Assembly (NCBI RefSeq): GCF_005844085.1
Contig: NZ_VCDI01000007.1
Coordinates: 62,001-126,000, forward strand
From: Lichenicoccus roseus
GTDB taxonomy: Bacteria; Pseudomonadota; Alphaproteobacteria; Acetobacterales; Acetobacteraceae
Reading direction: 5' to 3'
Length of the DNA: 64,000 nucleotides
Both the position numbers and the translations under genes were made by a program. Numbering within the stretch: the first letter of the stretch is position 1; each line of letters begins with the position of its first letter. Below the pieces are notes generated by a model that was given only the letters and a program-made list of their open reading frames with translations, was not told where the DNA came from and ran no database searches. Below are positions 1 through 11,400 of the stretch, in pieces.

Positions 1-2
1 AG

Positions 3-350
3 CGTGGTGACGGTAGCGGTCTGCGCGTGGCGGTGCGCGCCGCGCACGACGCTTTGCAGACCCTGAATGCGGACGATGTGGCGCGGGTGCTGGCGGCGGG
101 CAACTGGACGGTGCCGGCCGGGGCGTCGGGCGCGTGGCTGTGCGAGGTGCATCCCACGTTGGAGCAGGGCGACACTCCTGAGGTGGGGATCCTGTTCGTC
201 GCCAACACGTTCCTCTCGATGGACATGCTCGGCGATGACCAGCGTCGGCAGGTGGCGCTGTTCTGGCGACGTGCGCCCGACTTCCTGCAAGGCGCACTGG
301 CGCTCTCCGTGCTGCGCCCCGCCATTCTTCCCAGCCAGGTGCTCCAATGA
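3..350 (+). CDS. Hypothetical phage-region protein, probably 5'-truncated by the window edge
   Basis: The reading frame is open to the left edge of the window. A GTG at 27 could start a 107-residue protein, but there is no clear ribosome binding site before it, so the gene more likely begins outside. The visible part is a soluble mixed alpha/beta sequence with no motif I recognise. Its stop overlaps the next start codon as ATGA, so the two genes are translationally coupled. Such coupling with small unknown genes upstream of a terminase is typical of phage modules. No function can be assigned. Confidence 0.5.
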   Translation, partial: RGDGSGLRVAVRAAHDALQTLNADDVARVLAAGNWTVPAGASGAWLCEVHPTLEQGDTPEVGILFVANTFLSMDMLGDDQRRQVALFWRRAPDFLQGALALSVLRPAILPSQVLQ

Positions 351-775
351 GTCAGACCAACGTCGACTTTCGGTTGCGTGCTGCTGCCTTTGCGGCGGCT
401 CGTTTGGGCATGGCTCTTGACGCCGCGTGGTGCGACGAGCTGCGCGGCCGGAGCATTCCGGACTGTGTGATCCCGTCCGCCCGTCCGGTGCGCGCAACGC
501 GGCCGGAGACTGCCGCAACTTCCCCTGCCTCCATCGCAAAGGATGATGACGTGGACGACGAAATTGCCGAGAAGCTGCTCGCTTTCCTGGCCGAACGGCT
601 TGGCCCGTCCGATCTCGACAGGGCGGAGGGCATCCTACAGGGCCGCGACGATGGTCCAACCGGCATGGCGGCCGACAGTCTGCGGCGGCGGGTGGCGGCC
701 GGTGTCACGCGCAGGCAGGCGGCACGCGGCGGCTCCTTCGAGGCGATGTTCCCGCACGCGAACCGGCTGGCCTGA
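347..775 (+). CDS. Hypothetical phage-region protein, 142 aa
   Basis: Begins at the ATG of an ATGA overlap with the preceding gene. The N-terminal third is alanine-rich and basic, the middle is an acidic helix around residues 65 to 85 (DDDVDDEIAEKLLAF), and the last 40 residues are basic and end in FEAMFPHANRLA. I have the impression of similar short tails on small proteins near phage structural genes, but I cannot name the family. It is co-directional with its neighbours on both sides. Codon choice is GC-rich like the chromosome. Function unknown. Confidence 0.55.
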   Translation: MSQTNVDFRLRAAAFAAARLGMALDAAWCDELRGRSIPDCVIPSARPVRATRPETAATSPASIAKDDDVDDEIAEKLLAFLAERLGPSDLDRAEGILQGRDDGPTGMAADSLRRRVAAGVTRRQAARGGSFEAMFPHANRLA

Positions 776-778
776 CCG

Positions 779-1510
779 GTGCCGGCACTTGGCCTGCGCC
801 GCCAGCCGCCTGCGTTGTCGAGTGAGCGGCAGCACCTCGCGGCGTTGATTAGCGAACGCGACGACGCGGTGCGGCGGGCGCAGGCGCTAGAGGCGGCGGC
901 CGAGGCGGCCGACCGTGCGGTGTGGCAGGCGGATGCAGACTGCGAGGCGGCCGGGCGTGCGCTGCAGGAGGCGCGCGACGGCCTTGCCGACCGGGCACTG
1001 GCGATAGCGGCTGGCGAGGTGCTGGACGGTCCCGGGCCGGTGCAGGCGGCGCGGGAGCGCCTCGCGGCGGCCGAGGCGGCGCTGGTGGATGCGCGGCTGT
1101 CGCGCGATGCCTTGCGGGCGCGGTTGCAGCAGCCGGGGCATGGCCACACCGGACTGATCGACATGCGCGTGCATGAGGCGGCGGTGGCGGTGCTGGCCGC
1201 CGAGGTGCGGCCCCATGCGGCGCGAGTGCTGGCCCAGGTGGAGGCGGCGGAACGCGACGTGATCCGGCTGGGCCGCGAGCTCGTGTGGCTGGCGCGGCAT
1301 GGCGGCTTCGAGACGTCAGGGGAGCCAGGCGGGGCGTATGGCTATCCCGCAGACGACCAGACGCGCGCGGTGGTGCGGCGGTGCGAGCCGGGGCACCGGG
1401 GCCGGGACGATCTGCAGAACTGGCCCGTGCTGCGCGGCGAGGCGGCGTGGGAGCAGGCCTTGCAGGCGTTGAAGCATGACGCGACAGCGTTGCTTCCGGT
1501 GACCGCATGA
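779..1510 (+). CDS. Hypothetical coiled-coil protein, 243 aa, phage region
   Basis: A GTG start lies 3 nt after the previous stop, so it belongs to the same transcription unit. Residues from about 15 to 170 are almost entirely Ala/Glu/Arg/Leu-rich heptad-like helix, predicting a long coiled coil. The last 60 residues are less regular and Gly/Trp-containing. Long coiled coils next to packaging genes can be scaffolding, tail-length or structural proteins, but nothing specific shows which. Frames on the other strand across this stretch are compositional shadows. Confidence 0.5.
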   Translation: MPALGLRRQPPALSSERQHLAALISERDDAVRRAQALEAAAEAADRAVWQADADCEAAGRALQEARDGLADRALAIAAGEVLDGPGPVQAARERLAAAEAALVDARLSRDALRARLQQPGHGHTGLIDMRVHEAAVAVLAAEVRPHAARVLAQVEAAERDVIRLGRELVWLARHGGFETSGEPGGAYGYPADDQTRAVVRRCEPGHRGRDDLQNWPVLRGEAAWEQALQALKHDATALLPVTA

Positions 1511-1523
1511 GCGGCACCGGAAG

Positions 1524-1540
1524 AACTCTCGATCAGAGTT
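1524..1540. terminator. Small hairpin between convergent genes
   Basis: Perfect 6-bp arms AACTCT and AGAGTT with a 5-nt loop, sitting between the ends of the 779-1510 gene (plus) and the 1546-1995 gene (minus). It is short and lacks a strong T-run, so it is at best a weak bidirectional terminator. Confidence 0.35.
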
Positions 1541-1545
1541 AAGTT

Positions 1546-1995
1546 TCAGCGGAGTGCGATGCTGCTGATGCCGTGGCGTCGCAGGATAGCCAGAGCATAC
1601 TCGAGGCTGGAGTCCTGTATCTCTGCCTCAGCCGCCACTTCGTCGCGTTGAGGTGGAGTCGCTATGCCAGGGGCCGCCTCTGCTTTGGCATTTGGGTGAA
1701 GGACCTCGCGCACCTCATCGTCACTGTTGGCCTGCTCAAGCGCTTCCACCACGGCAGCCAACCGGTTGGCGAAAGCAGTCGAGACGTTGATTTTGTCGCC
1801 TGGGTTGTCACCCGGGTAACGGGTCGCGTTGCCGAGATATGTTGCCGCCCATTTCGCGGCCTCCGCGATCTGCCAGACGGCGAGCTTATGTTTTGCTCTT
1901 ACGGCATTGAAGCGACCAACCAATGCATCGGTCAGCATTCCGTTCAGGCTGACCTGATTAGCCGGGTTCCAGGCAAGGGATAGAGTCTGAGACAT
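1546..1995 (-). CDS. Hypothetical protein, 149 aa, divergent from the terminase
   Basis: ATG start at 1995. It is less GC-rich than the flanking genes and is preceded by an AT-rich intergenic stretch. The first 75 residues look like one folded domain (LAWNPANQVSLNG, then a helix with AEAAKWAATYLGNATRYPG). The middle is a helix (LAAVVEALEQANSDDEVREVL), followed by a Pro/Ala linker and a C-terminal helix EYALAILRRHGI. No family is recognised. Its position, opposite to and divergent from the terminase, is where phages often place regulatory or accessory genes. Function unknown. Confidence 0.55.
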   Translation of the reverse strand: MSQTLSLAWNPANQVSLNGMLTDALVGRFNAVRAKHKLAVWQIAEAAKWAATYLGNATRYPGDNPGDKINVSTAFANRLAAVVEALEQANSDDEVREVLHPNAKAEAAPGIATPPQRDEVAAEAEIQDSSLEYALAILRRHGISSIALR

Positions 1996-2033
1996 TTGCT
2001 TTTTCCATGTTCAGAGCCAAAAGCAGCTCTTAA

Positions 2034-2047
2034 ATGCTAAAAAGCAT
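2034..2047. promoter_or_regulatory. Small inverted repeat in the AT-rich divergent promoter region
   Basis: ATGCT-AAAA-AGCAT, a perfect 5-bp inverted repeat about 40 bp upstream of the minus-strand gene starting at 1995 and 90 bp upstream of the terminase. The surrounding 1996-2134 stretch is clearly AT-rich for this genome and probably carries both promoters. An operator role is only an inference. Confidence 0.3.
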
Positions 2048-2134
2048 ATCTTTTTGCTTCTGTAAAGCCAGAAGGGGCGAAACAGAGGTTTTCAACATTT
2101 TAAGGTTCTTAAAGTAGGTGGAAGATACCCTTCG

Positions 2135-3589
2135 GTGACGTTTTCGATCCTCGACGCACTGGACAGCCCTGCCGTGTTCGCCCCGCACTTCCGGGGCGGC
2201 CCGGCCTCCTGGCACGCGTGGCGGGCGTTCCTGGCGGCGCTGTTCGCCCTTCCGATGACCGATGACGACCTAGGGCTCTATCGGACGCATACAGGCCGCA
2301 GCGAGGCCCCTGCCGCCCCGTTCCGCGAGGCGGCGCTGATCTGCGGACGCCGCGCTGGCAAGAGCCGCATCCTGGCGTTGCTCGCGGTCTATCTTGCGGC
2401 GTTCCGGGACTACGGGCCGCACCTGGCATCGGGCGAGGTGGCGACCATCGCGGTGATTGCCGCCGACCGCCGGCAGGCGCGGCACATCATGCGCTACGTG
2501 CTGGGCCTGATCGACGGGGTGCCCGCCCTGGCCGCGCTAAAGAGCGACGAGACCGGTGAGTCGGTGGCGCTTGGCCCGCACTGCCTCATCGAGATCCACA
2601 CAGCCAGCTTCCGGGCTGTGCGCGGCTACACCTTGGCCGCCGTCTTGATCGACGAGGTGGCGTTTCTGAAAACGGATGAGCTGTCCGCCAATCCGGATCA
2701 GGAGATCCTGACGGCGGTGCGGCCGGGCCTGAGCAGCATCCCGGGCAGCCTGTTGATGATTGCGAGCTCGCCCTACGCGAAGCGCGGGGCGCTCTATCAG
2801 GCTTACCGGCAGCACTGGGGCAAGGACGACGCCCGCGTGCTGGTGTGGCAGGGCCCGACGTTGGCCATGAATCCTACGCTCGACCGTGCGCTGGTGGCGC
2901 AGGCCTACGAGGACGATGCGGCCAGAGCGGCGGCCGAGTTTGGCGCAATGTTCAGGGACGACATCGCGGCCTTTGTCTCTCGCGAGGTCATCGACGCCTG
3001 CACCGTGCCCGGCCGGTTCGAGCTGCCATTCATCACCGGCAACACCTACCACGGCTTCGTCGATCCGAGCGGCGGCAGCTCGGACAGCATGACGCTCGCG
3101 GTCGCCCATCTGGAGCGCGATGGGCTGGTGCAACTGGACGCGGTGCGTGAGGTGCGGCCGCCGTTCTCGCCGGAGGGGGTGGTGGCGGACTTCGTGGCGC
3201 TGCTCAAGTCCTACGGCATCCGGCGGGTGCGCGGCGATCGCTATGCGGGCGAGTGGGCACGCGAGCCGTTCCGCAAGCTGGGTGTCGAGTATCAGGTGTG
3301 CGAGCAGCCGCGCTCGGACCTCTATCGGGACCTGTTGCCGAGGCTGAACAGCCGCCAGGTGGAACTGCTCGACCTGCCCCGGCTCTCAAAGCAGTTGTGC
3401 GATCTGGAACGGCGCACGGCGCGCGGCGGCCGGGACAGCATCGACCATGCCCCCGGAGCGCACGATGACATCGCCAACGCAGTGGCCGGAGCGTTACTAA
3501 TGCCGCTAGGGGCTGCGCCGCCCATGCAGATCACGCAGGCGGCGCTGGAGTGGGCGCGGGCCCGGCCTGTGCGGGCAGTGCGGTGGTAG
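2135..3589 (+). CDS. Phage terminase large subunit (ATPase-nuclease)
   Basis: The motor and nuclease that packages phage DNA into proheads. The GTG start at 2135 follows a GGTGGAAG ribosome binding site. The P-loop GRRAGKS is at residues 71-77 and the Walker B AAVLIDEVAF has its Asp-Glu pair at 173-174, giving the ATPase half. An SSP motif (residues 211-213) fits the coupling motif. The RNase H-like nuclease half shows GFVDPSGG (Asp310), GDRYAGEW (Asp368) and AHDDIANAV (Asp444/445), a complete acidic triad. The 484-residue length is normal. Oddly, no small terminase subunit, portal or capsid gene lies next to it. The protein looks intact, so it may serve an element whose other genes lie to the left of the window, or it may be a relic. 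Confidence 0.88.
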   Translation: MTFSILDALDSPAVFAPHFRGGPASWHAWRAFLAALFALPMTDDDLGLYRTHTGRSEAPAAPFREAALICGRRAGKSRILALLAVYLAAFRDYGPHLASGEVATIAVIAADRRQARHIMRYVLGLIDGVPALAALKSDETGESVALGPHCLIEIHTASFRAVRGYTLAAVLIDEVAFLKTDELSANPDQEILTAVRPGLSSIPGSLLMIASSPYAKRGALYQAYRQHWGKDDARVLVWQGPTLAMNPTLDRALVAQAYEDDAARAAAEFGAMFRDDIAAFVSREVIDACTVPGRFELPFITGNTYHGFVDPSGGSSDSMTLAVAHLERDGLVQLDAVREVRPPFSPEGVVADFVALLKSYGIRRVRGDRYAGEWAREPFRKLGVEYQVCEQPRSDLYRDLLPRLNSRQVELLDLPRLSKQLCDLERRTARGGRDSIDHAPGAHDDIANAVAGALLMPLGAAPPMQITQAALEWARARPVRAVRW

Positions 3590-3696
3590 TGCAGCCGGTG
3601 AGGCCACGTCCGATCAGTGCTGCTCAGAAGCGGACATTATAAAGTAGAGTCTGCTGACAGCCAGCACGCCCATCTATAACGTGGAAGAAAGTTAAA

Positions 3697-3837
3697 ATGG
3701 CCCCTAAAGCTGCCATTAACATAGTTGAGGAGAAGTCGCTAGTTCGAGTTCAGCCATTTCACCGGGTAATTTCACCTTTTTTAAAAGAACTTAGCCGTTG
3801 CCAGTGGCAGCGCTGCCAGGTCATGCGCGAGTTATAA
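3697..3837 (+). CDS. Short hypothetical ORF, 46 aa, at the start of the low-GC patch
   Basis: ATG at 3697 is preceded by GGAAGAAAG at good spacing. The peptide starts MAPKAAINIVEEKSLVRVQP and has ordinary composition. It ends before the ATG at 3912 of the larger downstream gene. It could be a leader or small partner of that gene, or a decayed fragment. The stretch 3590-3911 otherwise holds only AT-rich intergenic sequence. Confidence 0.35.
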   Translation: MAPKAAINIVEEKSLVRVQPFHRVISPFLKELSRCQWQRCQVMREL

Positions 3838-3911
3838 GGCAGTTCTACCAGCTACGGCGTCTTATCAACTTTACTATTCGCCTTGGCCTACGATGGTGGC
3901 AGGATAGGCCA

Positions 3912-5144
3912 ATGCATTTGTTATCTTCTAATAATCGTTCCGAGTTCTTGGCGTGTCCGCAGCTAGTCCGCTTCGACTACGTCAGGGGCAGCGATGGGTT
4001 TGAACCCACCCTACTGATCAAAGGCAGCACGCTTCTTCTGAAATATGTGGTGCTGGGTGTGCCGACTCAACTTGCCTTTGCAGTCTGCAATGGTCGCTTA
4101 TTGTGTGCGTTACAAATACACGATGATGGCGACGACGGTGGCATCCTTTGGTCTATTGTAGAACGTGAAGAAGAACTGAATGGGATTCGTGGATTGGCAC
4201 GCGGTGAGCCGCTGGTAGTGTTTTTGTTCAACGAACTTGCCGTTAACATCGCTTGGAACGACTTTACGACGCTAGGCATATTGGATCGCCTGTCCGAGTG
4301 GGCTGCATGCGCAACGTTCGGGCAAGTCGACCACTCGACAATGATGGCGACGACAAGCCCGCTACTCGACCGCCTTCATCGTCGTGTCGAAGATGACGAC
4401 GTCTGGCTGGTGCTGGAAATTGGCGGCAGGTCCGACTGGAGACCCGTCCGCAATCACTTCATCACGGCGGGGGCTTCCTCTACTCTGATTGACATCTTTG
4501 ACGGCAATGAAGGTAATCAGCAGGAGCAGTTAGCCGTTTGGCTTACCGATAATCTTCTGCCAACAGGTGTGCATTACAGCCCACAGATTCCGAAGGGCGC
4601 TGGAACGCGAGAGTTGACGGATCTACTGCTAAGCTACGAATTCGGTGCGGTGCTGATCGAATCCAAGGCGCTGTCGATATTGACGCGTGAGCGGCTGCCC
4701 GACCGTGCAAAGTTAAAGCGCAAGATTTCTTCAGATATTAAGAAAGCCTTTGCGCAACTGCGCGGTGCCATAAGGGCGCTGCGGTCTGGTATTTTGGTGA
4801 CGGGTTTGAAGGGAGACACGCTATTAGTCGAACGCGAAAGTCCTGCTCATGTGATCGTTCTCGTTCCCGACTTAGAACTGGTTGAGGACCGTGCCGCCTA
4901 CGGTATCGAGTTCATACGCGAATTCACCCGCGCGTCCGGCGGCTTTCCTCATTTGCTTGACATTTCGGAATTGCTTCGTGTTGTGCAGGCCGCCGAAATG
5001 ATTGCTGCACGAGGTAAGACGACCACGCCAATGATGGCGTTCGACTACTACCTTACGCAACGGCTCGAACAAGCGGTTGATGCCGGCACACTATGCATTG
5101 AAGTGCTGTTGCAGTTCACTGAAGCCGAAACGGAGACAAACTAA
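3912..5144 (+). CDS. Unknown 410-aa protein with a PD-(D/E)xK-nuclease-like core
   Basis: I chose the ATG at 3912, which has AGGATAGG just upstream. The same frame is open to a TTG at 3798 with no ribosome binding site. The protein is soluble, with no signal peptide. The segment TRELTDLLLSYEFGAVLIES followed by KA resembles the Asp...Glu-x-Lys strand-turn of PD-(D/E)xK nucleases, with Glu about 250 and Lys about 252. A basic helix after it (KLKRKISSDIKKAFAQLRG) fits the usual follow-on helix. The N-terminal 200 residues match nothing I know. The region uses many AT-rich codons (TTA, ATA, TAT), unlike the neighbouring housekeeping genes, suggesting recent transfer. It could be a defence or mobile-element nuclease. 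The fold call is inference. Confidence 0.6.
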   Translation: MHLLSSNNRSEFLACPQLVRFDYVRGSDGFEPTLLIKGSTLLLKYVVLGVPTQLAFAVCNGRLLCALQIHDDGDDGGILWSIVEREEELNGIRGLARGEPLVVFLFNELAVNIAWNDFTTLGILDRLSEWAACATFGQVDHSTMMATTSPLLDRLHRRVEDDDVWLVLEIGGRSDWRPVRNHFITAGASSTLIDIFDGNEGNQQEQLAVWLTDNLLPTGVHYSPQIPKGAGTRELTDLLLSYEFGAVLIESKALSILTRERLPDRAKLKRKISSDIKKAFAQLRGAIRALRSGILVTGLKGDTLLVERESPAHVIVLVPDLELVEDRAAYGIEFIREFTRASGGFPHLLDISELLRVVQAAEMIAARGKTTTPMMAFDYYLTQRLEQAVDAGTLCIEVLLQFTEAETETN

Positions 5145-5528
5145 AGATACGCAGACTACTCAGAAGAAATCAACGACGACAGGTCATCGCATTTCCGATC
5201 TGGAGGTAATAGACCGAGTTCAGTCTTCACTTGTCATCACTCGAAAGCGTCCCTTTTACTCCCGGCGAGTTCACGCCAAGGTGGGCATGTCGGCAATTCG
5301 AATTCCACCCGAGAGAAGACAGGCGGCTAACCAGCTTCATTGAGGTGAAACCTCAGCGGCACGTCAGAATGGGACACTCTTCCCGTGTCGTTAGGGTTGT
5401 CCTGGATCTTTCGGAGCGCAGCGACCTCGAAACTTAAACTTTTATGGAGTAAGCCGGTCCGAAACACTTTCGCTTCCGTTGCTAGCGGACCCCCGTGCTC
5501 TAGACTGACATTAGTTAGAGGACTGGGC
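5145..5528. other. Intergenic stretch without a convincing gene
   Basis: 384 bases between the 410-aa gene and the 169-aa nuclease-like gene. Frames of about 67 residues exist on both strands (minus 5327-5530, plus 5231-5437), but neither has a recognisable family or a ribosome binding site. TTGCTA and TAGACT spaced 16 nt near 5490-5515 could be the promoter for the downstream gene. Base composition matches the low-GC patch. Confidence 0.4.
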
Positions 5529-6038
5529 ATGGCGAGAACCGGATCGATAAATACAGCGATGCTTGGAGCCGCCGGGGAGCATTACGTGATGTGCCAGCTT
5601 CTTCGGCGCGGTATGATCGCAGCGATTGCTCCAGCTGGAGCGCCGGATGTCGATATCATCGTCTCTGACAGAGAGGGACACTCACTGGCTGCCGTTCAGG
5701 TGAAGGCCCGACAGAACACGAACGGCAAGAGTGGATGGCCACTCAACCGAAAGCACGAAGGGATCATACGCTCCTCGCTATTCTATGCCTTCGTAGATTT
5801 TGGAAAAACACTGACTGACCCGCCTCGGTGCTGGATCGTGCCGAGCAGTGTCGTAGCCGAGGCAATCACCGACAGTCATAAGTCCTGGCTAAGCATGCCT
5901 GGTCACAGTGGTCGGGTTCATCAGGATAACGACATGCGATCGTTCCTGCATGACTATAGCCACCAAGGCCTCGATCGTCCCGCAGGATGGCTCAGCCAAT
6001 TTCTTGAACGGTGGGACACTATCCTTGCTGGCGCCTAG
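5529..6038 (+). CDS. Small PD-(D/E)xK nuclease-like (Holliday-resolvase-like) protein, 169 aa
   Basis: The frame is open further upstream, but the ATG at 5529 follows an AGAGGA ribosome binding site and removes a non-protein-like extension. The N-terminus has GAAGEHYVMCQLLRRG (Glu17), then APDVDIIVSDREG (Asp40/Asp42), then LAAVQVKARQ (Gln57-x-Lys59). This Glu...Asp...Q/E-x-K order is the signature of PD-(D/E)xK endonucleases such as archaeal-type resolvases and intron- or element-encoded nucleases. The C-terminal part (RCWIVPSSVVAEAI and later) looks like the shared trailing domain of such proteins. It overlaps nothing and lies 23 nt before the ParB-like gene. The biological role is not determined. 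Confidence 0.6.
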   Translation: MARTGSINTAMLGAAGEHYVMCQLLRRGMIAAIAPAGAPDVDIIVSDREGHSLAAVQVKARQNTNGKSGWPLNRKHEGIIRSSLFYAFVDFGKTLTDPPRCWIVPSSVVAEAITDSHKSWLSMPGHSGRVHQDNDMRSFLHDYSHQGLDRPAGWLSQFLERWDTILAGA

Positions 6039-6061
6039 CTGGAAACCAGGGAGTATCGACT

Positions 6062-6847
6062 ATGCTGCCACCTGAGCTCGCGATGCGAGCCTTCCACCCC
6101 ATCGCCGACCTATTTCCCCTCATAACCGGCCCGGACTTCGAAGCACTGGTCGCGGACGTCCAGGCGCATGGCCTGCGCGAGGCCATCGTGTTGCATGCCG
6201 ACGGCCGGGTGCTCGATGGCCGCAACCGGCTGCGGGCCTGCATAGCGGCGGGTGTCGAGCCGGTGTTTGCCACCTACGAAAGGTCCGACCCGCTGGCCTA
6301 CGTGGTGTCGTTGAACCTGCGCAGGCGGCACCTCGACGAGACCCAGCGGGCGCTGGTGGCGGCCCGGATCGCCACCCTTGGGGTCGGTCGGCCGTCAACT
6401 AACCCCGCAAACCTGCCGGGTATCGGGCAGGCCGAGGCCGCGGAACTGCTCAATGTGTCGGAGCGGAGCGTGCGATCAGCAGTCACGGTGCGCGACCATG
6501 CGATCCCTGCACTGGCCGGGCATGTGGAGCGCGGCGAGGTGTCGGTGTCGGCCGCCTCGGCCGTGGCCCGCCTTCCTGAGGATGAGCAGGAAGTGATCGT
6601 GGCGCGCGGCGAGCGCGAGATCCTGGCTGCCGCCAAGCGCATCCGCGACGCACGGGCTGCCGAACGCGAGGCCGTGGCGCTTGGCTTGCTGGGCGAGCGT
6701 TTCGGCGTCGCGCCGTTCACGGTGCTGAACGCGCGGGAAGGCTGGTGGCAGGAGCGCAAGCGCGGGTGGTTGGCACTTGGCATCCAGAGCGAGTTGGGGC
6801 GCGGGGACCAATGTCACCGCGCGCCCGACAGTTCTAGCTTTGGTTGA
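6062..6847 (+). CDS. ParB-like nuclease-domain protein, probably missing its native C-terminus
   Basis: ATG at 6062 follows AGGGAG. Residues 8 to 100 form a ParB N-terminal/sulfiredoxin-type domain with the signature GRVLDGRNRLRA near residues 48-58. An HTH follows (GQAEAAELLNVSERSVRSAV, about 120-140), then a long helix. The sequence FTVLNAREGWWQERKRGW near residue 220 is characteristic of phage ParB-like proteins found with methyltransferases. I would expect the chain to continue past it, but this one leaves the family-like sequence around residue 248 and ends in QCHRAPDSSSFG. Those last codons run into the convergent gene 6834-7388, which suggests the 3' end was replaced by recombination. 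Partition-type function is not implied. Confidence 0.7.
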   Translation: MLPPELAMRAFHPIADLFPLITGPDFEALVADVQAHGLREAIVLHADGRVLDGRNRLRACIAAGVEPVFATYERSDPLAYVVSLNLRRRHLDETQRALVAARIATLGVGRPSTNPANLPGIGQAEAAELLNVSERSVRSAVTVRDHAIPALAGHVERGEVSVSAASAVARLPEDEQEVIVARGEREILAAAKRIRDARAAEREAVALGLLGERFGVAPFTVLNAREGWWQERKRGWLALGIQSELGRGDQCHRAPDSSSFG

Positions 6848-7388
6848 ACACCGTGGCATTTGCCACTCGGCGTGCCAACTCGACCCTGAAATTCTCGAGC
6901 TGGACACTCTGTGTAGCGCACACCCTGTTCACGTGATTCGAGTGTTTTTCGACCTCAGCCATCTTGGTCGTCACTTCGTCGATCTGCCCCGATAGCGTCC
7001 CGACCTGCTTTCGTAGCTCTCCAATCTGCTTGTGTTGCTCCAGGATCTTATTGTCCTGCGCCTGCTCCTTCTCGTGGTCTTTCTTGAACTGGAGGGCAAG
7101 CTTGAGCAGGCCCTCCTGCTGAGGCACCGTGAGACGCTTTACGTCTTCCTTCAGACCTGCCAGCAGCTGCTCCTTACGCGGCATCGCCTCAACCTTCGCA
7201 AAGAGCGACTTGATGTTCCGCGGAAGGGCGCGCTCGCCCAGCGCCCAGGACTGCACTGTTCGGAGCGGCGTTCCCGTAAGGGCTGCAAAGGCGGATTGCC
7301 CTATTTCAAGGCGTTTGAGTTCTGCTCGGAATACCTCCCGGCCCATCTTTGATTTCACGGAGACGACGTTGCTTGACCGCGTTGTCAT
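6834..7388 (-). CDS. HTH (Cro/CI-like) regulator with a C-terminal coiled coil
   Basis: I chose the ATG at 7388 because GGGAGG sits just upstream. A longer frame begins at 7442, inside the operator. Residues about 15 to 60 (REVFRAELKRLEIGQSAFAA...RTVQSWALGERALP) form a helix-turn-helix of the XRE/plant-type HTH class. Residues 75 to 170 are Lys/Glu/Gln-rich heptads, a long coiled coil likely used for oligomerisation. The last 15 bases overlap the convergent ParB-like gene. A perfect 12-bp inverted repeat lies 18-46 bp upstream of the start, so autoregulation is very plausible. It may be the repressor controlling this element. Confidence 0.72.
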   Translation of the reverse strand: MTTRSSNVVSVKSKMGREVFRAELKRLEIGQSAFAALTGTPLRTVQSWALGERALPRNIKSLFAKVEAMPRKEQLLAGLKEDVKRLTVPQQEGLLKLALQFKKDHEKEQAQDNKILEQHKQIGELRKQVGTLSGQIDEVTTKMAEVEKHSNHVNRVCATQSVQLENFRVELARRVANATVFNQS

Positions 7389-7405
7389 GATGCCCTCCCG
7401 GCGCT

Positions 7406-7443
7406 CTATGTGCGTATCTAGTATACGCACATAGTTACGCACA
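7406..7443. promoter_or_regulatory. Operator: perfect 12-bp inverted repeat plus a third half-site
   Basis: CTATGTGCGTAT (7406-7417), a 5-nt spacer, then ATACGCACATAG (7423-7434), an exact inverted repeat. TACGCACA recurs at 7437-7444, overlapping the end as an extra half-site. It lies immediately upstream of the HTH gene whose start is at 7388. This is what a dimeric repressor binding its own promoter would need. Confidence 0.6.
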
Positions 7444-7593
7444 GTTCAAGGTGGTGTAGAGGCAGATGAGCAATGGGGTAGTTGCATCTCCCACGTAGGG
7501 ATGAGGGGCCTCTACCGCCCTGCCTGCCATGACGGTGATGCCGCGCTCGCGGCGGCCGTAGGCGCAGCGCAGCGGCAGGTGGATCAATGCCAC
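7435..7593 (-). CDS. Possible short ORF, 52 aa, upstream of the HTH regulator
   Basis: The frame begins at GTG 7593 (or the TTG two codons on, which has AAGG at better spacing) and ends at TAA inside the operator region. The peptide (ALIHLPLRCAYGRRERGITV...) is protein-like but unrecognised. It would lie upstream of, and in the same direction as, the HTH gene. Small element-encoded protein or chance frame; low certainty. Confidence 0.3.
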   Translation of the reverse strand: MALIHLPLRCAYGRRERGITVMAGRAVEAPHPYVGDATTPLLICLYTTLNCA

Positions 7594-7760
7594 CTTCCCT
7601 CACCCGGATGCGATCACGCCCCGTAGATCGAGCGACACCGCCCGCTGCGCCCTGCATCGCCTATTCCGTTCCGGCACACCACCGCCCGAAAGCGGATCAC
7701 CAGACGGCCTTGCGTCGATAGAACAACTATATAAACGTTTCGTAAACGCTACGGAATGTG

Positions 7761-7766
7761 TATGAT
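7761..7766 (+). promoter_or_regulatory. Possible -10 element TATGAT before the first GC hairpin
   Basis: TATGAT lies 24 nt before the hairpin at 7790, so initiation near 7773 would give a roughly 50-nt RNA ending in the terminator. The -35 (TTTCGT at 7738-7743, 17-nt spacing) is poor. The AAACGTTTCGTAAACG sequence around the -35 contains a repeated TAAACG that could be a binding site. Confidence 0.25.
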
Positions 7767-7789
7767 CCTGGGGCAGACATCATGACTTG

Positions 7790-7823
7790 GCCCCGCTGCC
7801 GTCACAGGCGGCGGGGCTTTTTT
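7790..7823 (+). terminator. GC hairpin with T-run, first copy
   Basis: GCCCCGCTGCC, loop GTCACA, GGCGGCGGGGC, then six Ts. This is a strong intrinsic terminator shape on the plus strand with no obvious protein gene upstream on that strand. It could end a short non-coding RNA. Confidence 0.55.
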
Positions 7824-7919
7824 GCTCGGCATCGAGATTGGCTGACATAGCTATCAGCACAAACCAGGCCGGATAAGGCACGGCGCTTGCAAGGTGCCGA
7901 ACGTTTCCTCAAGCAACTT

Positions 7920-7952
7920 GCCCCGCTGCCCTAATTGGCGGCGGGGCCTTTT
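7920..7952 (+). terminator. GC hairpin with T-run, second copy exactly 130 bp after the first
   Basis: Arms are identical to the copy at 7790 (GCCCCGCTGCC / GGCGGCGGGGC) but the loop is CTAATT, followed by CCTTTT. Identical stems with unrelated loops suggest a maintained structure. The 7594-7959 stretch contains these two hairpins and no convincing protein gene. Confidence 0.5.
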
Positions 7953-7959
7953 GCTGATG

Positions 7960-8301
7960 TCACTGGACGGTATGCCCGGCTGCACTACCTGCCAGGTGCT
8001 GCAAAACCGCATTGGCCCGGACCAGGCGCTCACGGAGCCATTTCAAATCAGCATCTGCTGCCGGTGGCGTCAGCAGCTTGGCGGCCGCTATGGCGGCCTG
8101 CCAGTAGCGGACGGCGGGCACCATGTCCCCGTTTGCCTCGCTTTTGAACGCTAACTCCCGCCAGAGGGCTACGTCACCCGCCGGCCCCTGAGGCCGCTTG
8201 TTCGGCTCCACCGTGCCGCCGTTCTTCGGGTGGGTGTCGCCGCTTGGTATGCTGCATGCCTTGCGGGCCTTGCGGGCGATAAGGCGTCGGCGGACTAGCA
8301 T
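7960..8301 (-). CDS. Hypothetical protein, 113 aa
   Basis: ATG at 8301 with AAGGG eight bases upstream. The N-terminal 40 residues are basic and probably disordered (RRRLIARKARKAC...). From residue 45 there is a compact helical repeat (DVALWRELAFKSEANGDMVP, AVRYWQAAIAAAKLL, LKWLRERLVRANAVLQHL) resembling a pair of TPR-like helical hairpins. It may bind a partner protein or nucleic acid. No family is recognised. A small palindrome CTCGA-GCAT-TCGAG lies about 25 bp upstream. Confidence 0.5.
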   Translation of the reverse strand: MLVRRRLIARKARKACSIPSGDTHPKNGGTVEPNKRPQGPAGDVALWRELAFKSEANGDMVPAVRYWQAAIAAAKLLTPPAADADLKWLRERLVRANAVLQHLAGSAAGHTVQ

Positions 8302-8380
8302 AGCAGGCCCTTAACGATTGTTTACCTCTCGAGCATTCGAGCTGTGGAACTTGGTAGATGCACTACGTTCCGCGTCCGTT

Positions 8381-8608
8381 ATGTCATTTGTGCCGCCGCC
8401 GCCGCTACCGTCCCTGGCCCCCACCAACCTGCAGGGCTAGACATCGGCTGTCCCACCGCCCGCTCCAGGACGGGCCGCCTCACCATCGCGACCCGGCTCG
8501 AGCGCACCGATAAGTCCAGCGGCGGCAAGTGGGGCCAACCACAAGCACATCATGGGCGAGATACACAGCCTGCTGACCCGGCTGGTGGAGCACTGGGCGC
8601 TGGGCTGA
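8381..8608 (+). pseudogene. Short ORF interrupted by an in-frame TAG
   Basis: One frame starts ATG at 8381 (MSFVPPPPLPSLAPTNLQG), meets TAG at 8438-8440, then continues 55 codons as a Pro/Ala/Ser-rich linker followed by a helix (HKHIMGEIHSLLTRLVEH) and a TGA at 8606-8608. Proline-rich composition on both sides of the stop and a good helix at the end suggest one gene broken by an amber codon. The rest of the 8302-8760 interval shows nothing else. Confidence 0.35.
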
Positions 8609-8760
8609 GGAGCGGGCACCTTAGCAAGTAGATTGCTTGTGCTTCTACGCTCGGTTTATTCATATCGTAGCCGCAACGTCGAGGGAGGCCAGCTTCGCTG
8701 AACCGCTCGACCCCGTTCTGTCCCACTTCCCACGACAGGGCGGCCTGAGAGGAAGAACGC

Positions 8761-9186
8761 ATGGCCGAAATACCTGAACCTATTTTTGCGCCAGACGGAG
8801 ATGACGTTCTGGAGTTAATCACTGCCATGCAGACGGTCATGCGGGAGATGGAGGAAGGCAACATACAGGCTAGCGTTGCTCACCGTGCCCTGTGCCGAAA
8901 GGCCTACGAGCCCTTTCGCGCGCTCCTGGACGATGACGGCATGGACTACATGTCGTTCGGCGACGCGCTGCATATCCGCCGGGAGGCGGATATGCAGATT
9001 ATAATGGAGGAACGCTGGCAGTGGCACCTCGCAGGAAATTCGCTTGGCTACAAGAGCAGCGCTAGGACCCTAGAAGACGGCACTGCCGAGATCTGCATGG
9101 GGGATTTCAGGTATCAGAAGGCGCCTGACAGCTTCGTCTGGGCTGCTGTGCTGCCGCAGCGGAAAGCAACAGGAGACGGCCTATAA
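8761..9186 (+). CDS. Hypothetical protein, 141 aa
   Basis: ATG at 8761 with a strong GAGAGGAAG ribosome binding site. It is acidic and soluble, with helices at residues 15-35 (LELITAMQTVMREMEEG) and 40-60, then an RREADMQIIMEERWQWHLA segment and a beta-rich C-terminus (TAEICMGDFRYQKAPDSFVW). No motif is recognised. A possible promoter lies around 8630-8665. It is convergent with the cluster of very short minus-strand genes that follows. Confidence 0.55.
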   Translation: MAEIPEPIFAPDGDDVLELITAMQTVMREMEEGNIQASVAHRALCRKAYEPFRALLDDDGMDYMSFGDALHIRREADMQIIMEERWQWHLAGNSLGYKSSARTLEDGTAEICMGDFRYQKAPDSFVWAAVLPQRKATGDGL

Positions 9187-9201
9187 GTCTGCGGTTCTCT
9201 G

Positions 9202-9393
9202 TCACCGCACCACTCCACCCTGGACACAGCAGGCGCGGCAGGCCGGTTTCACCGGCGCCGAGGTTCGGTAATACCCTCCCCTACGGCTGGCCACGTCATG
9301 GCAGATGTTCCACTTCCCGCTCCAGCACACGTCGCTTGACTTCTGTCTGGAGCCCCTAGGCCTGCCGGCGAAGCGCGCGCACCTGGCTTCCAA
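9202..9393 (-). CDS. Possible Cys-rich small protein, up to 63 aa
   Basis: ATG at 9393 overlaps the upstream 54-aa gene by 38 bases. An internal GTG (at the residue before CWSGKWNIC) is an alternative start. The core has CWSGKWNIC and later KPACRACC, giving spaced cysteines that could bind zinc. It is the last of several tightly packed short minus-strand frames. Confidence 0.35.
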   Translation of the reverse strand: MEARCARFAGRPRGSRQKSSDVCWSGKWNICHDVASRRGGYYRTSAPVKPACRACCVQGGVVR

Positions 9394-9520
9394 CTGGCCG
9401 CCCGTATGCGGCCTGGAGCAGCTGCTCAGCCACCGCCAGCTCGCTATCCGCCGCCAGCAGGGCGTCGAGCACGATGCGATCCTGCCCCGGCAGCAAGCCG
9501 ACCCTCCGCGGGTTCACCAT
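9356..9520 (-). CDS. Short helical protein, 54 aa
   Basis: ATG at 9520, 4 bases after the previous short frame. The sequence begins MVNPRRVGLLPGQDRIVLDA and continues as amphipathic helices (LAADSELAVAEQLLQAAYG), ending in a basic tail. It is plausible as a real gene because of its composition and tight packing. Function unknown. Confidence 0.4.
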   Translation of the reverse strand: MVNPRRVGLLPGQDRIVLDALLAADSELAVAEQLLQAAYGRPVGSQVRALRRQA

Positions 9521-9524
9521 CGGT

Positions 9525-9617
9525 TCAGGAGTGCAGCTTCTCGGTCGCTGACCTGACGCAGCCCGGACAGCACATGAGCGCGCCGTCCAGGCTCAGCGTG
9601 TCGCTATGGCGCTTCAT
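9525..9617 (-). CDS. Very short ORF, 30 aa, with a CCPGC motif
   Basis: ATG at 9617, 14 bases after the stop of the ribbon-helix-helix-like gene. It encodes MKRHSDTLSLDGALMCCPGC and ten more residues. The clustered cysteines hint at metal binding, but the size makes the call weak. Confidence 0.3.
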   Translation of the reverse strand: MKRHSDTLSLDGALMCCPGCVRSATEKLHS

Positions 9618-9631
9618 GCGCGCGCTACCGC

Positions 9632-9796
9632 CTACAGGCCAGCTTCGATGAGCCGGCGAGCCGCCTCTGCTTGCGGTGGAAGGTCGGGCTGGTCCCCCCG
9701 CCACGCGTCGATCTGGTCGGGCAGGGTGGGCGGGAGCCGCAGCTCGAATCGGGTTGGCCTGCGTTCTTCTTGCAAGGCAGCGATTTTACGACCCAC
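9632..9796 (-). CDS. Ribbon-helix-helix-like small protein, 54 aa
   Basis: GTG at 9796 with a weak GTAGG upstream. The sequence RRPTRFELRLPPTLPDQIDA is the typical ribbon-helix-helix start: a strand with alternating Thr/Phe/Leu/Leu, then a helix. It is followed by DLPPQAEAARRLIEAGL, the second helix seen in Arc/CopG-like DNA-binding proteins. Such proteins act as dimers and often are antitoxins or element regulators. No toxin gene is adjacent. It is first in a row of four very short minus-strand frames, which suggests one transcript. Confidence 0.6.
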   Translation of the reverse strand: MGRKIAALQEERRPTRFELRLPPTLPDQIDAWRGDQPDLPPQAEAARRLIEAGL

Positions 9797-9905
9797 TACG
9801 TAGCCTACGCAATCCGTTTGACCGGCGGGGCCCTTATACGGAGGTTAAGTATATTCAACGGGCGCAGATCTCCTGCAGCCCTGGCGGTGGCGCAGAGGGA
9901 CGACA

Positions 9906-10127
9906 GTGATTGACCGGGGGAAGGCGGCGGTGATGCGGCAGGTAATTAGCGACATGAGGCGGATCATCGCTTAAAATCTGGCCTCCGTTGCGAGGCTGCG
10001 CCACGAGATTGAGGAAGCGGACGAGCCCGATGAACGGCAGCTCGGGATCTTGGTTCGAGTGCTGCAGCATTATGCCGCCATCGGACTGAAGTTGCAGCAC
10101 ACGGGGCCGCGGTCATCGCTATCCTGA
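9906..10127 (+). pseudogene. Short helical ORF interrupted by an in-frame TAA
   Basis: GTG at 9906 with GAGGG seven bases upstream starts MIDRGKAAVMRQVISDMRRI, then TAA at 9972-9974. The same frame continues 50 codons with coherent helical sequence (VARLRHEIEEADEPDERQLG, then LVRVLQHYAAIGLKL) to TGA at 10125. The good start site and the protein-like sequence after the stop argue for a recently broken small gene. Confidence 0.45.
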
Positions 10128-10181
10128 GGCCGGCCTGAAGCCCGATCCAGCTGTGAGCCGCGCCGCGCACATAGAAAAGCT

Positions 10182-11201
10182 TTACAGGCATAAGGGATCG
10201 GGAACCGCTCCTACCGTTTGGCTTTCGCCCTTCTTCCTTACCACTCGCATAACCTCATCCAGAAATGGAGAAGACAGCATCTTCCGAGTGGAGGCATCGA
10301 TTGTCAGGAAGCGCAGCACATCTCGACCGTCGGTGCCATTCAGGTATCGATTTGCGTCCGCTGTTATCCAAGCCGTTGCCGCAAAGATGTCAAATATGCG
10401 AAGGCAAATCGCAATTCTTTCGTTGATGACAGTGGCGAAAGCGAGATGATGAGCACGATGCGGTAGCCAGAGAGGGAACAGATCGGAAGAACCGGCATCC
10501 CCGCAGTAACCCATCAATGTTTGGGCGATCGCAGGATCCGCCGATGTCACGGCGCTTCGAAGCTCCGAAGCTCTCGGATCATCAAGATAAGTCTCACCGA
10601 GCCACAGAAACGCAAGTTCATATATGATCTTGAGCAATGAATGCTCAAGGTATTTAAATTTGACTGTCAGATTGAACAGGACATTTGGGTTTTGCCGCAC
10701 GGTGACGGTCCGCGACGCTCGATCGAGGATCTCAGACATTTCCTGCTCAGTTGCAGGAGGAAGCCTACGGCGTTTGCGCTCTCTTTGAATGATCAGCGGA
10801 AGAGTGTGTAGTTCTGTCTCATCCACAAGAACTTGGAACGATACTTCTCCTTTCTCGTTTTCAATCACGGGAGACTTATGCTGGATCAGCCTGATATCCA
10901 TCTTCTGAGTGCGCGGGTTGAACTTCGTTCTGACGCGTAGCTCAGGGTCATCCACGAGCGTCGCAACGCCCTCCATTATCTCGTATTCCGAAGGAACGTG
11001 AGAACTATTTCCAGCAAGATGTAGCTCAGCTCGGCGCATACGTATCAGGAAGTGGTCGACAAGTGCTGCATCCACTCTACTGCCAAGCTGCGAATTGCAG
11101 GGCTCGCAGACGCGATCAGTGGTCAGGGGCCCCCCGATAGCGAGCGGAAAAACGTGTTCCTCGGAGCCGTCTCGCTCAAGCTGGCAGAATATACATCGCA
11201 T
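10182..11201 (-). CDS. HNH endonuclease-like protein (HNH_5 type), 339 aa
   Basis: I chose the ATG at 11201, which follows GAGGTAGGAACC. The frame is open 29 codons further. The N-terminus carries CIFCQLERDGSEEHVFP and then VCEPCNSQLGS: two CxxC zinc pairs (Cys3/6, Cys32/35) enclosing a Glu-His (Glu15, His16) and ending CN...LG. This is the layout of HNH-family nucleases with a zinc knuckle. The remaining 290 residues, including FNLTVKFKYLEHSLLKIIYE and a hydrophobic region near 270, belong to no domain I know. It is the last gene of the island before the tRNA-Glu. It is lower in GC than the chromosome and may be a defence or selfish nuclease. Confidence 0.68.
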   Translation of the reverse strand: MRCIFCQLERDGSEEHVFPLAIGGPLTTDRVCEPCNSQLGSRVDAALVDHFLIRMRRAELHLAGNSSHVPSEYEIMEGVATLVDDPELRVRTKFNPRTQKMDIRLIQHKSPVIENEKGEVSFQVLVDETELHTLPLIIQRERKRRRLPPATEQEMSEILDRASRTVTVRQNPNVLFNLTVKFKYLEHSLLKIIYELAFLWLGETYLDDPRASELRSAVTSADPAIAQTLMGYCGDAGSSDLFPLWLPHRAHHLAFATVINERIAICLRIFDIFAATAWITADANRYLNGTDGRDVLRFLTIDASTRKMLSSPFLDEVMRVVRKKGESQTVGAVPDPLCL

Positions 11202-11324
11202 GGTTCCTACCTCAGGCCGCTTCGTGTCCTGGTCCCTTGCGGCTCGGACTGACTGTCCAAGGCTGTATATCGGCCAGATCTTGGACAACTGCGCCGGCAG
11301 AAGCAGCTACATCGTTGCAAAGAT

Positions 11325-11400
11325 TGGCGTCCCGTAGGGGATTCGAACCCCTGTTACCGCCGTGAGAGGGCGGTGTCCTAGGCCTCTAGACGAACAGGAC
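11325..11400 (-). tRNA. tRNA-Glu (anticodon CTC)
   Basis: Cloverleaf on the minus strand: acceptor GTCCTGT pairs with ACGGGAC, the anticodon loop CTCTCAC gives CTC, the T-arm GTTCGAATC is present, and CCA is encoded at 11327-11325. The 3' end points at the accessory region, so this gene is the probable attachment site of the element to its left. Confidence 0.95.

What the first reader, a model, noticed from the sequence alone, without database searches (positions are those of the whole stretch)
3697..6038. Low-GC cargo with two different PD-(D/E)xK-like proteins, one of unknown family
The 410-aa protein (3912-5144) has a TDLL...GAVLIESKA core matching the Asp...ExK nuclease pattern but an unrecognised 200-residue N-terminus. 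The 169-aa protein (5529-6038) has a separate Glu...Asp...QxK set. Two nuclease-like genes with foreign codon use behind a terminase is a typical spot for phage-defence or anti-phage cargo. I know of no described system with this pair.
Basis: inference. Interest (0 to 1): 0.6.

Follow-up and report, generated by a model that had tools for sequence, protein, structure and literature searches.

The report
Solitary mobile nuclease gene near tRNA-Ser
Two unrelated nuclease-like genes ride in a small integrated phage-like element; they are not a team, but the larger one belongs to a rare, uncharacterised family that turns up alone beside tRNA genes in other bacteria and is probably a one-gene defence nuclease.

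Summary
Both proteins are real, at the stated coordinates, in a low-GC patch behind a large-terminase gene. They lie in a 17.05-kb element (tyrosine integrase, AAA_25 protein, TerL; 44-bp direct repeat at the 3' end of tRNA-Glu) that begins 5.7 kb before the window. Both carry PD-(D/E)XK-type residues invariant in their own families, but two AlphaFold runs gave no reliable fold for the larger protein. The 'pair' is not a system: the small protein's family is absent from the 16 other genomes found with the large one. The larger protein (410 aa) founds a rare family (16 relatives, 39-78% identity). In 8 of 17 loci it stands alone on the 3' side of a tRNA gene (seven tRNA-Ser, one tRNA-Arg), in either orientation. 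In three Rhodobacteraceae a ~1.4-kb gene-only unit, 88-91% identical, sits between unlike right flanks behind two different tRNA-Ser genes; its left edge is the T arm/3' end of the tRNA. It is under purifying selection (dN/dS about 0.25). Best reading: a stand-alone anti-phage/anti-element nuclease that moves as single-gene cargo; function untested. P0002 is an ordinary small Mrr/YraN-like accessory gene.

The parts
3912..5144 (+). P0001: 410-aa protein; N-terminal region 1-180 of unknown type, C-terminal NERD-like PD-(D/E)XK region (about 200-350)
4620..4667 (+). codons of Asp237 (4620-4622), Glu250 (4659-4661) and Lys252 (4665-4667), the D...ExK core
   Evidence: invariant in 14 of 14 members
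5529..6038 (+). P0002: 169-aa small Mrr/YraN-like protein with E17...D42...QxK (57-59)
2135..3589 (+). large terminase subunit of the element
   Evidence: PHROG 2 E 7.8e-23; relatives in 27 of 298 genomes of the order
6056..6847 (+). ParB-like protein
   Evidence: phrog_4715 E 7.9e-14, phrog_15396 3.5e-13
10182..11288 (-). further low-GC cargo: HNH_5 endonuclease-like protein
   Evidence: PF14279 E 3.3e-13
11325..11368 (.). right attachment repeat, the 3'-terminal 44 nt of tRNA-Glu; identical copy at C24:56274-56317 (L019:10274-10317), outside the window
1..11368 (.). part of the 17.05-kb integrated element that lies in the window (the rest, with integrase and AAA_25 gene, is C24:56274-62000)

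Best explanation
The two genes are separate accessory genes of a 17-kb integrated, terminase-bearing phage-like element. P0001 is a stand-alone nuclease: its C-terminal region has the E...D...ExK...Q residues of PD-(D/E)XK enzymes of the NERD kind, and its faster-changing N-terminal region probably senses or binds a target. I think it most likely cuts nucleic acid of incoming phages or rival elements as a one-gene defence, and spreads as single-gene cargo that lodges on the 3' side of tRNA genes, above all tRNA-Ser. P0002 is an unrelated small Mrr/YraN-like protein of prophages and plasmids. Shown here: gene integrity, conserved residues, purifying selection, separate occurrence, the element with its att repeat, the single-gene unit beside tRNA-Ser. 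Inferred: nuclease activity, defence role, role of the N-terminal region, how the unit moves.
For: Invariant catalytic-type residues in 14 of 14; NERD is the only recurrent Pfam hint (8 of 14 members at E<=1, best 0.0069). dN/dS 0.24-0.29 in four pairs; the N-terminal part is less conserved than the C-terminal part in 64 of 66 pairs, mean 59.1 against 68.6%. Sporadic: 2 of 299 order genomes, 1 of 385 class genomes, 3 of 295 in one other family, all counts including the centre genome; one copy per genome in 12 of 13, the 13th split over two contigs. Gene-only unit 88-91% identical over about 1.5 kb where shared flanks are 71.6-72.6%. Window copy rides in an element with integrase and att repeat. 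In Sphingobium the 5' part of a split copy abuts a DUF262 protein, best PDB match E 7.9e-17, with weaker matches to SspE chains.
Against: No PADLOC match for either protein. Two structure predictions were of low confidence (mean pLDDT 60.5 and 54.8) and gave no convincing fold match, so the nuclease fold rests on residues, weak profile hints and order of secondary structure. NERD stays below Pfam's cut-off for P0001 (14.6 against 22.1 bits). Most neighbourhoods of the family were not shown to be defence islands. No activity data.
Confidence: 0.5

Rival explanations
1. Leftover cargo. P0001 is carried by ordinary tRNA-targeting integrative elements; where it stands alone, the rest of the element was deleted and the tRNA-proximal gene was kept. 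Its mobility is that of the lost integrase.
For: The window copy is in such an element, and related elements sit on the 3' side of tRNA-Ala, Tyr, Lys, Ser, Glu, Asn and Arg genes. A tRNA-Ser-like remnant follows the gene in L007 (14-nt exact repeat; alignment).
Against: Three copies share nearly the same right edge, about 100-125 nt past the stop, although their right flanks differ; independent decay should not stop at one place. No duplicated tRNA 3' end was found at the far side of the solitary copies in the stretches held, L007's remnant apart, which is on the near side. Of 13 genomes searched none has an integrase gene within 4.9 kb of P0001 and 12 none within 20 kb, several on short contigs.
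Confidence: 0.22
2. Homing-like selfish gene: the nuclease cuts an unoccupied tRNA-Ser 3' region and repair copies the gene in.
For: Seven of 17 loci beside tRNA-Ser, always on its 3' side, with different anticodons and both orientations; left edge inside the T arm/3' end.
Against: Nine of 17 loci, the window's among them, show no tRNA next to the gene and one is at tRNA-Arg. No shared right flank that could guide repair. The tRNA stays intact. Target recognition untested.
Confidence: 0.1
3. P0001 and P0002 form a two-gene defence system.
For: Neighbours, same strand, similar low GC.
Against: 384-nt gap between the genes; P0002 family absent from the other P0001 loci and from 16 other P0001 genomes; P0002 relatives lie in prophages and a plasmid without P0001.
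Confidence: 0.03
4. P0001 serves the element's own replication, recombination or repair rather than defence.
For: PD-(D/E)XK enzymes include many such nucleases (recalled).
Against: Absent from the sibling element in the same genome and from the other 19 fetched places with a related terminase; solitary copies have no recognised replication module beside them (ORFs read by eye).
Confidence: 0.1

Closest known systems
NERD (nuclease-related domain, PF08378)
   Same: order of residues E...D...ExK...Q in P0001 (NERD's own order recalled); weak hits in 8 of 14 members
   Different: P0001 is below the gathering score (14.6 against 22.1 bits); it has a 180-residue N-terminal region and a C-terminal tail not covered by the match
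PHROG 30399 (phage protein family, function unknown)
   Same: residues 197-329 of P0001 align to 198-329 of 417, so similar length and position (E 1.9e-5)
   Different: only the catalytic part matches; no tblastn match to P0001 in 50,697 phage records
Mrr_cat (PF04471), PDDEXK_5 (PF11645) and YraN families, PHROG 29029
   Same: P0002 has the E...D...QxK arrangement; PHROG 29029 E 2.2e-9
   Different: below the Pfam and NCBIfam cut-offs; function of PHROG 29029 unknown
Terminase-bearing phage satellites / reduced prophages
   Same: integrase, AAA_25 protein, terminase, tRNA att site, 17 kb
   Different: no capsid or tail gene recognised in the window copy; helper dependence unknown

Membership tests
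PD-(D/E)XK nuclease superfamily (P0001) | conserved D...(D/E)xK residues | tested here: met
   D237, E250, K252, also E205 and Q282, invariant in 14 of 14 and in 12 of 12 with a 39% relative
PD-(D/E)XK nuclease superfamily (P0001) | PD-(D/E)XK fold | tested here: inconclusive
   pLDDT 30-40 over the core, same on the domain alone; no convincing match. Order helix-strand-strand-helix-strand-helix-strand after residue 200 is compatible
NERD (PF08378) | Pfam gathering score | tested here: not met
   14.6 against 22.1 bits
Mrr_cat (PF04471), for P0002 | Pfam gathering score | tested here: not met
   14.8 against 21 bits
PD-(D/E)XK nuclease superfamily (P0002) | conserved E...D...(E/Q)xK residues | tested here: met
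   E17, D42, Q57, K59 invariant in 7 of 7
PD-(D/E)XK nuclease superfamily (P0002) | PD-(D/E)XK fold | not tested
Known anti-phage systems (PADLOC 2.0.0) | match to a model | tested here: not met
   none for P0001 or P0002 at E<=1
Homing endonuclease gene | cleaves the unoccupied site and is copied into it | not testable with these tools
   only location near tRNA-Ser 3' ends seen
Integrated phage-like element at a tRNA gene (window element) | integrase next to one of two att repeats, one in a tRNA gene | tested here: met
   44-bp repeat, PF00589 integrase E 2.1e-17
Phage satellite | packaged by a helper phage | not testable with these tools
   -

The most novel reading that the evidence does not exclude
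P0001 marks a minimal mobile unit of one nuclease gene with about 100 bp on each side that inserts on the 3' side of tRNA-Ser genes without an integrase of its own, with the nuclease itself driving the insertion.
Probability: 0.1. Interest if true: 0.75.

Novelty: new variant of a known kind. Interest (0 to 1): 0.42.

Why it matters
It names a rare nuclease family, not matched above cut-off by the curated libraries searched, that moves as a single gene and keeps landing beside tRNA-Ser genes. If it defends against phages it is a compact system that defence-island searches would miss because it has no partners. If the nuclease drives its own insertion, it would be a new route of single-gene mobility. 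The apparent pair with P0002 is worth dismissing so that nobody tests the wrong combination.

Tried and rejected
Pair hypothesis: rejected. Shared ancestry of P0001 and P0002 beyond the superfamily: profile comparison gave 0.2% probability. Relatives of P0001 in plasmids, phages and viral contigs: none (the 39% relative as query; wider alignment; the 48% relative against phages). Profiles of both families against PDB sequences: none at E<=1.

Structure prediction of P0001 twice (whole; residues 177-410): too weak to decide the fold; Foldseek best E 0.082, VIA best Z 4.7. The N-terminal region of P0001 was not folded on its own.

Far-side copy of the tRNA 3' end at solitary loci: none of 11 nt or more within the stretches held, except a 14-nt match about 50 bp from the gene (near side) in L007 and an 11-nt match of sequence just past the tRNA, 4.6 kb away, in L018. 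Terminal inverted repeats of the L011 unit: best 8 nt, taken as chance. Right-flank hairpin of L011: z -1.2, not special. Search with the right flank of L018 in its genus for an empty site: 0 of 8 other genomes. Promoter scan of the cargo: nothing. L009 and L012 neighbours against PDB: no match.

Papers: six searches answered. I saw the listings and abstract starts only and opened no paper. None of the listings named this family or a gene-only unit at tRNA-Ser; that is the whole basis for calling it undescribed.

Full report
What is there. The window is contig C24:62001-126000 of a 4.79-Mb genome in 26 contigs. The 410-aa (P0001) and 169-aa (P0002) ORFs are intact and lie in DNA of 0.49-0.56 GC between genes of 0.67-0.70.

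The element. A 44-bp sequence, the 3' end of tRNA-Glu at 11325-11368, is repeated exactly at C24:56274-56317. Inside lie a tyrosine integrase next to the left repeat (Phage_integrase E 2.1e-17, PHROG 1 E 4.1e-52), an AAA_25 protein (E 9e-31), the large terminase, the two genes of the finding, a ParB-like protein and an HNH_5 protein. The distance between repeat starts is 17,051 bp. A sibling in the same genome (L087; integrase 84% identical, terminase 50%) sits at another tRNA-Glu gene with a 44-bp repeat and measures 17,049 bp. A related terminase occurs in 27 of 298 genomes of the order at E<=0.001, window genome included. I fetched 20 of these places; 14 showed a tRNA gene on the terminase's downstream side within the stretch held. 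The stretch between terminase and tRNA there is mostly head, tail and unknown phage genes, and 1 of 58 proteins scanned matched PADLOC at E<=1e-4. So that spot is not in general a defence-cargo site; in the window element it is filled in part by low-GC genes. None of the 20, nor the viral contig L038, carries P0001 or P0002.

P0001 as a protein. Pfam gives only a weak NERD hint (E 0.047; 8 of 14 family members at E<=1, best 0.0069), PHROG 30399 E 1.9e-5 over residues 197-329, PADLOC nothing. E205, D237, E250, S251, K252 and Q282 are invariant. Two AlphaFold runs failed to give a confident catalytic region, so the fold is not shown. Selection is purifying: dN/dS 0.25, 0.29, 0.24 and 0.25 in the four pairs computed (in that script the L030 sequence was cut one base short at its end, which affects only the last codon). 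The N-terminal part is less conserved than the C-terminal part in 64 of 66 pairs of the 12 members used; L013 and L016, which are incomplete, were left out.

Where P0001 occurs. 17 loci in all: the window, L006-L018 (13 loci), G109 (L002/L020), G879 (L030) and G762 (L031). Eight of the 17 have a tRNA gene within 600 bp: L006 (Ser-GGA, about 80 bp from the gene), L007 (Ser-CGA, 231), L008 (Ser-CGA, 586), L011 (Ser-GGA, 107), L014 (Arg-CCG, 145), L016 (Ser-GCT, 117), L018 (Ser-CGA, 108), L030 (Ser-CGA, 109). In all eight the gene lies on the 3' side of the tRNA. In L006, L007, L008 and L016 it points towards the tRNA, in L011, L014, L018 and L030 away. The other nine do not show one within 600 bp; L013 has a tRNA-Gly 2.6 kb away, L009 is a 3.9-kb contig, and L013 and L016 begin at contig ends. 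As an internal control, the 13 loci L006-L018 hold 8 tRNA genes in 124.6 kb, and 7 of the 8 lie within 600 bp of the gene. The loci are not all independent: L007/L008 and L018/L030 share a chromosomal place.

The unit. L011 (Tropicimonas) and L018 (Thalassovita) share 1526 bp at 91% from the tRNA-Ser gene to about 100 bp past the stop, with unrelated flanks; L030 shares the same stretch at 88-90%. The tRNA bodies differ (GGA and CGA) up to the T arm, then the sequence is near-identical. L018 and L030 are at one chromosomal place (L21, L27 and Obg genes on the far side of the tRNA in L018; matching DNA in L030), but those shared flanks are 71.6 and 72.6% alike against 88% for the unit, and the right flanks do not match beyond about 125 nt past the stop. 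L007 (with L008) is at the same place too, with the gene in the opposite orientation, so at least two insertions hit this tRNA. In 29 of 29 fetched relatives that hold the left flank of L011 (out of 179 genomes searched; 30 loci were fetched, one being L011's own genome), similarity to L011 never ran past position 4908, 15 nt past the tRNA, and none held its right flank; the tRNA itself lay in the fetched stretch in about half of them. Thus the left border is the tRNA 3' end; the right border is inferred from the three-way comparison only. A tyrosine integrase gene lies 4.9 kb away in G762, 22 kb in G683, 70 kb or more in five others, and on no shared contig in the remaining six; 13 of the 16 other P0001-bearing genomes were searched.

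L007 and L008 are 93.5% identical over 1.73 kb including the gene and a piece of a peroxidase gene tail, against 78-81% in their flanks, which also speaks for recent transfer.

P0002. Relatives at 46-54% lie in three viral contigs (L023-L025), a plasmid of Agrobacterium leguminum and G128, and a 27% one in G278. In one search its family was sought in 17 genomes: absent from all 16 P0001-bearing ones other than the window's; the one hit, G128, had been included because it carries P0002.

How it probably works. Shown: two independent accessory genes; P0001 an intact, selected, mobile single gene with conserved nuclease-type residues. Inferred: it cuts nucleic acid on a cue read by the N-terminal region and thereby defends the carrier. 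The one supporting neighbour is a DUF262 protein (best match 9jfl_B E 7.9e-17; SspE chain E 1.3e-5) next to the 5' part of the split Sphingobium copy. That SspE is a phage-defence protein is recalled. I put defence at about one half; decay of larger tRNA elements, a homing-like habit and a housekeeping role for the element share most of the rest.

Scores. The pair is ordinary. The P0001 family with its tRNA-Ser habit is moderately interesting (0.42); the boldest reading, self-driven insertion, is open but unlikely (0.1). Gene names given for host neighbours (katG-like, cysK, alaX) are by eye supported by Pfam families.

Noticed in passing
window 11325-11368 with C24:56274; L087:640-17689: Two diverged sibling elements in one genome (terminase 50% identical) have nearly equal length between att repeats, 17,051 and 17,049 bp; perhaps chance, perhaps a packaging size.
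   Followed up: no
window 10182-11288 (-): HNH_5 protein (PF14279 E 3.3e-13) in a second low-GC patch of the same element; an HNH-like ORF (by eye) lies 4.2 kb from a P0002 relative in viral contig L025:9708-10480.
   Followed up: no
L032:127-291 and L013:41-1180: The Sphingobium copy of P0001 is split over two contigs; its 5' part abuts a DUF262 protein (PDB matches include SspE).
   Followed up: partly
L008:4730-4945: Second copy of a peroxidase (katG-like) gene tail beside P0001, closer to that of L007 than to L008's own gene: the tail seems to have moved with P0001.
   Followed up: partly
L018:6492-6548: 57-bp sequence right of the unit has three further copies (96-100%) in the Thalassovita genome, some near contig ends; possibly an IS end.
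   Followed up: no
L009: A 3.9-kb contig binned as Acidimicrobiales carries a P0001 relative 67% identical to the window's; binning error or very wide transfer.
   Followed up: no
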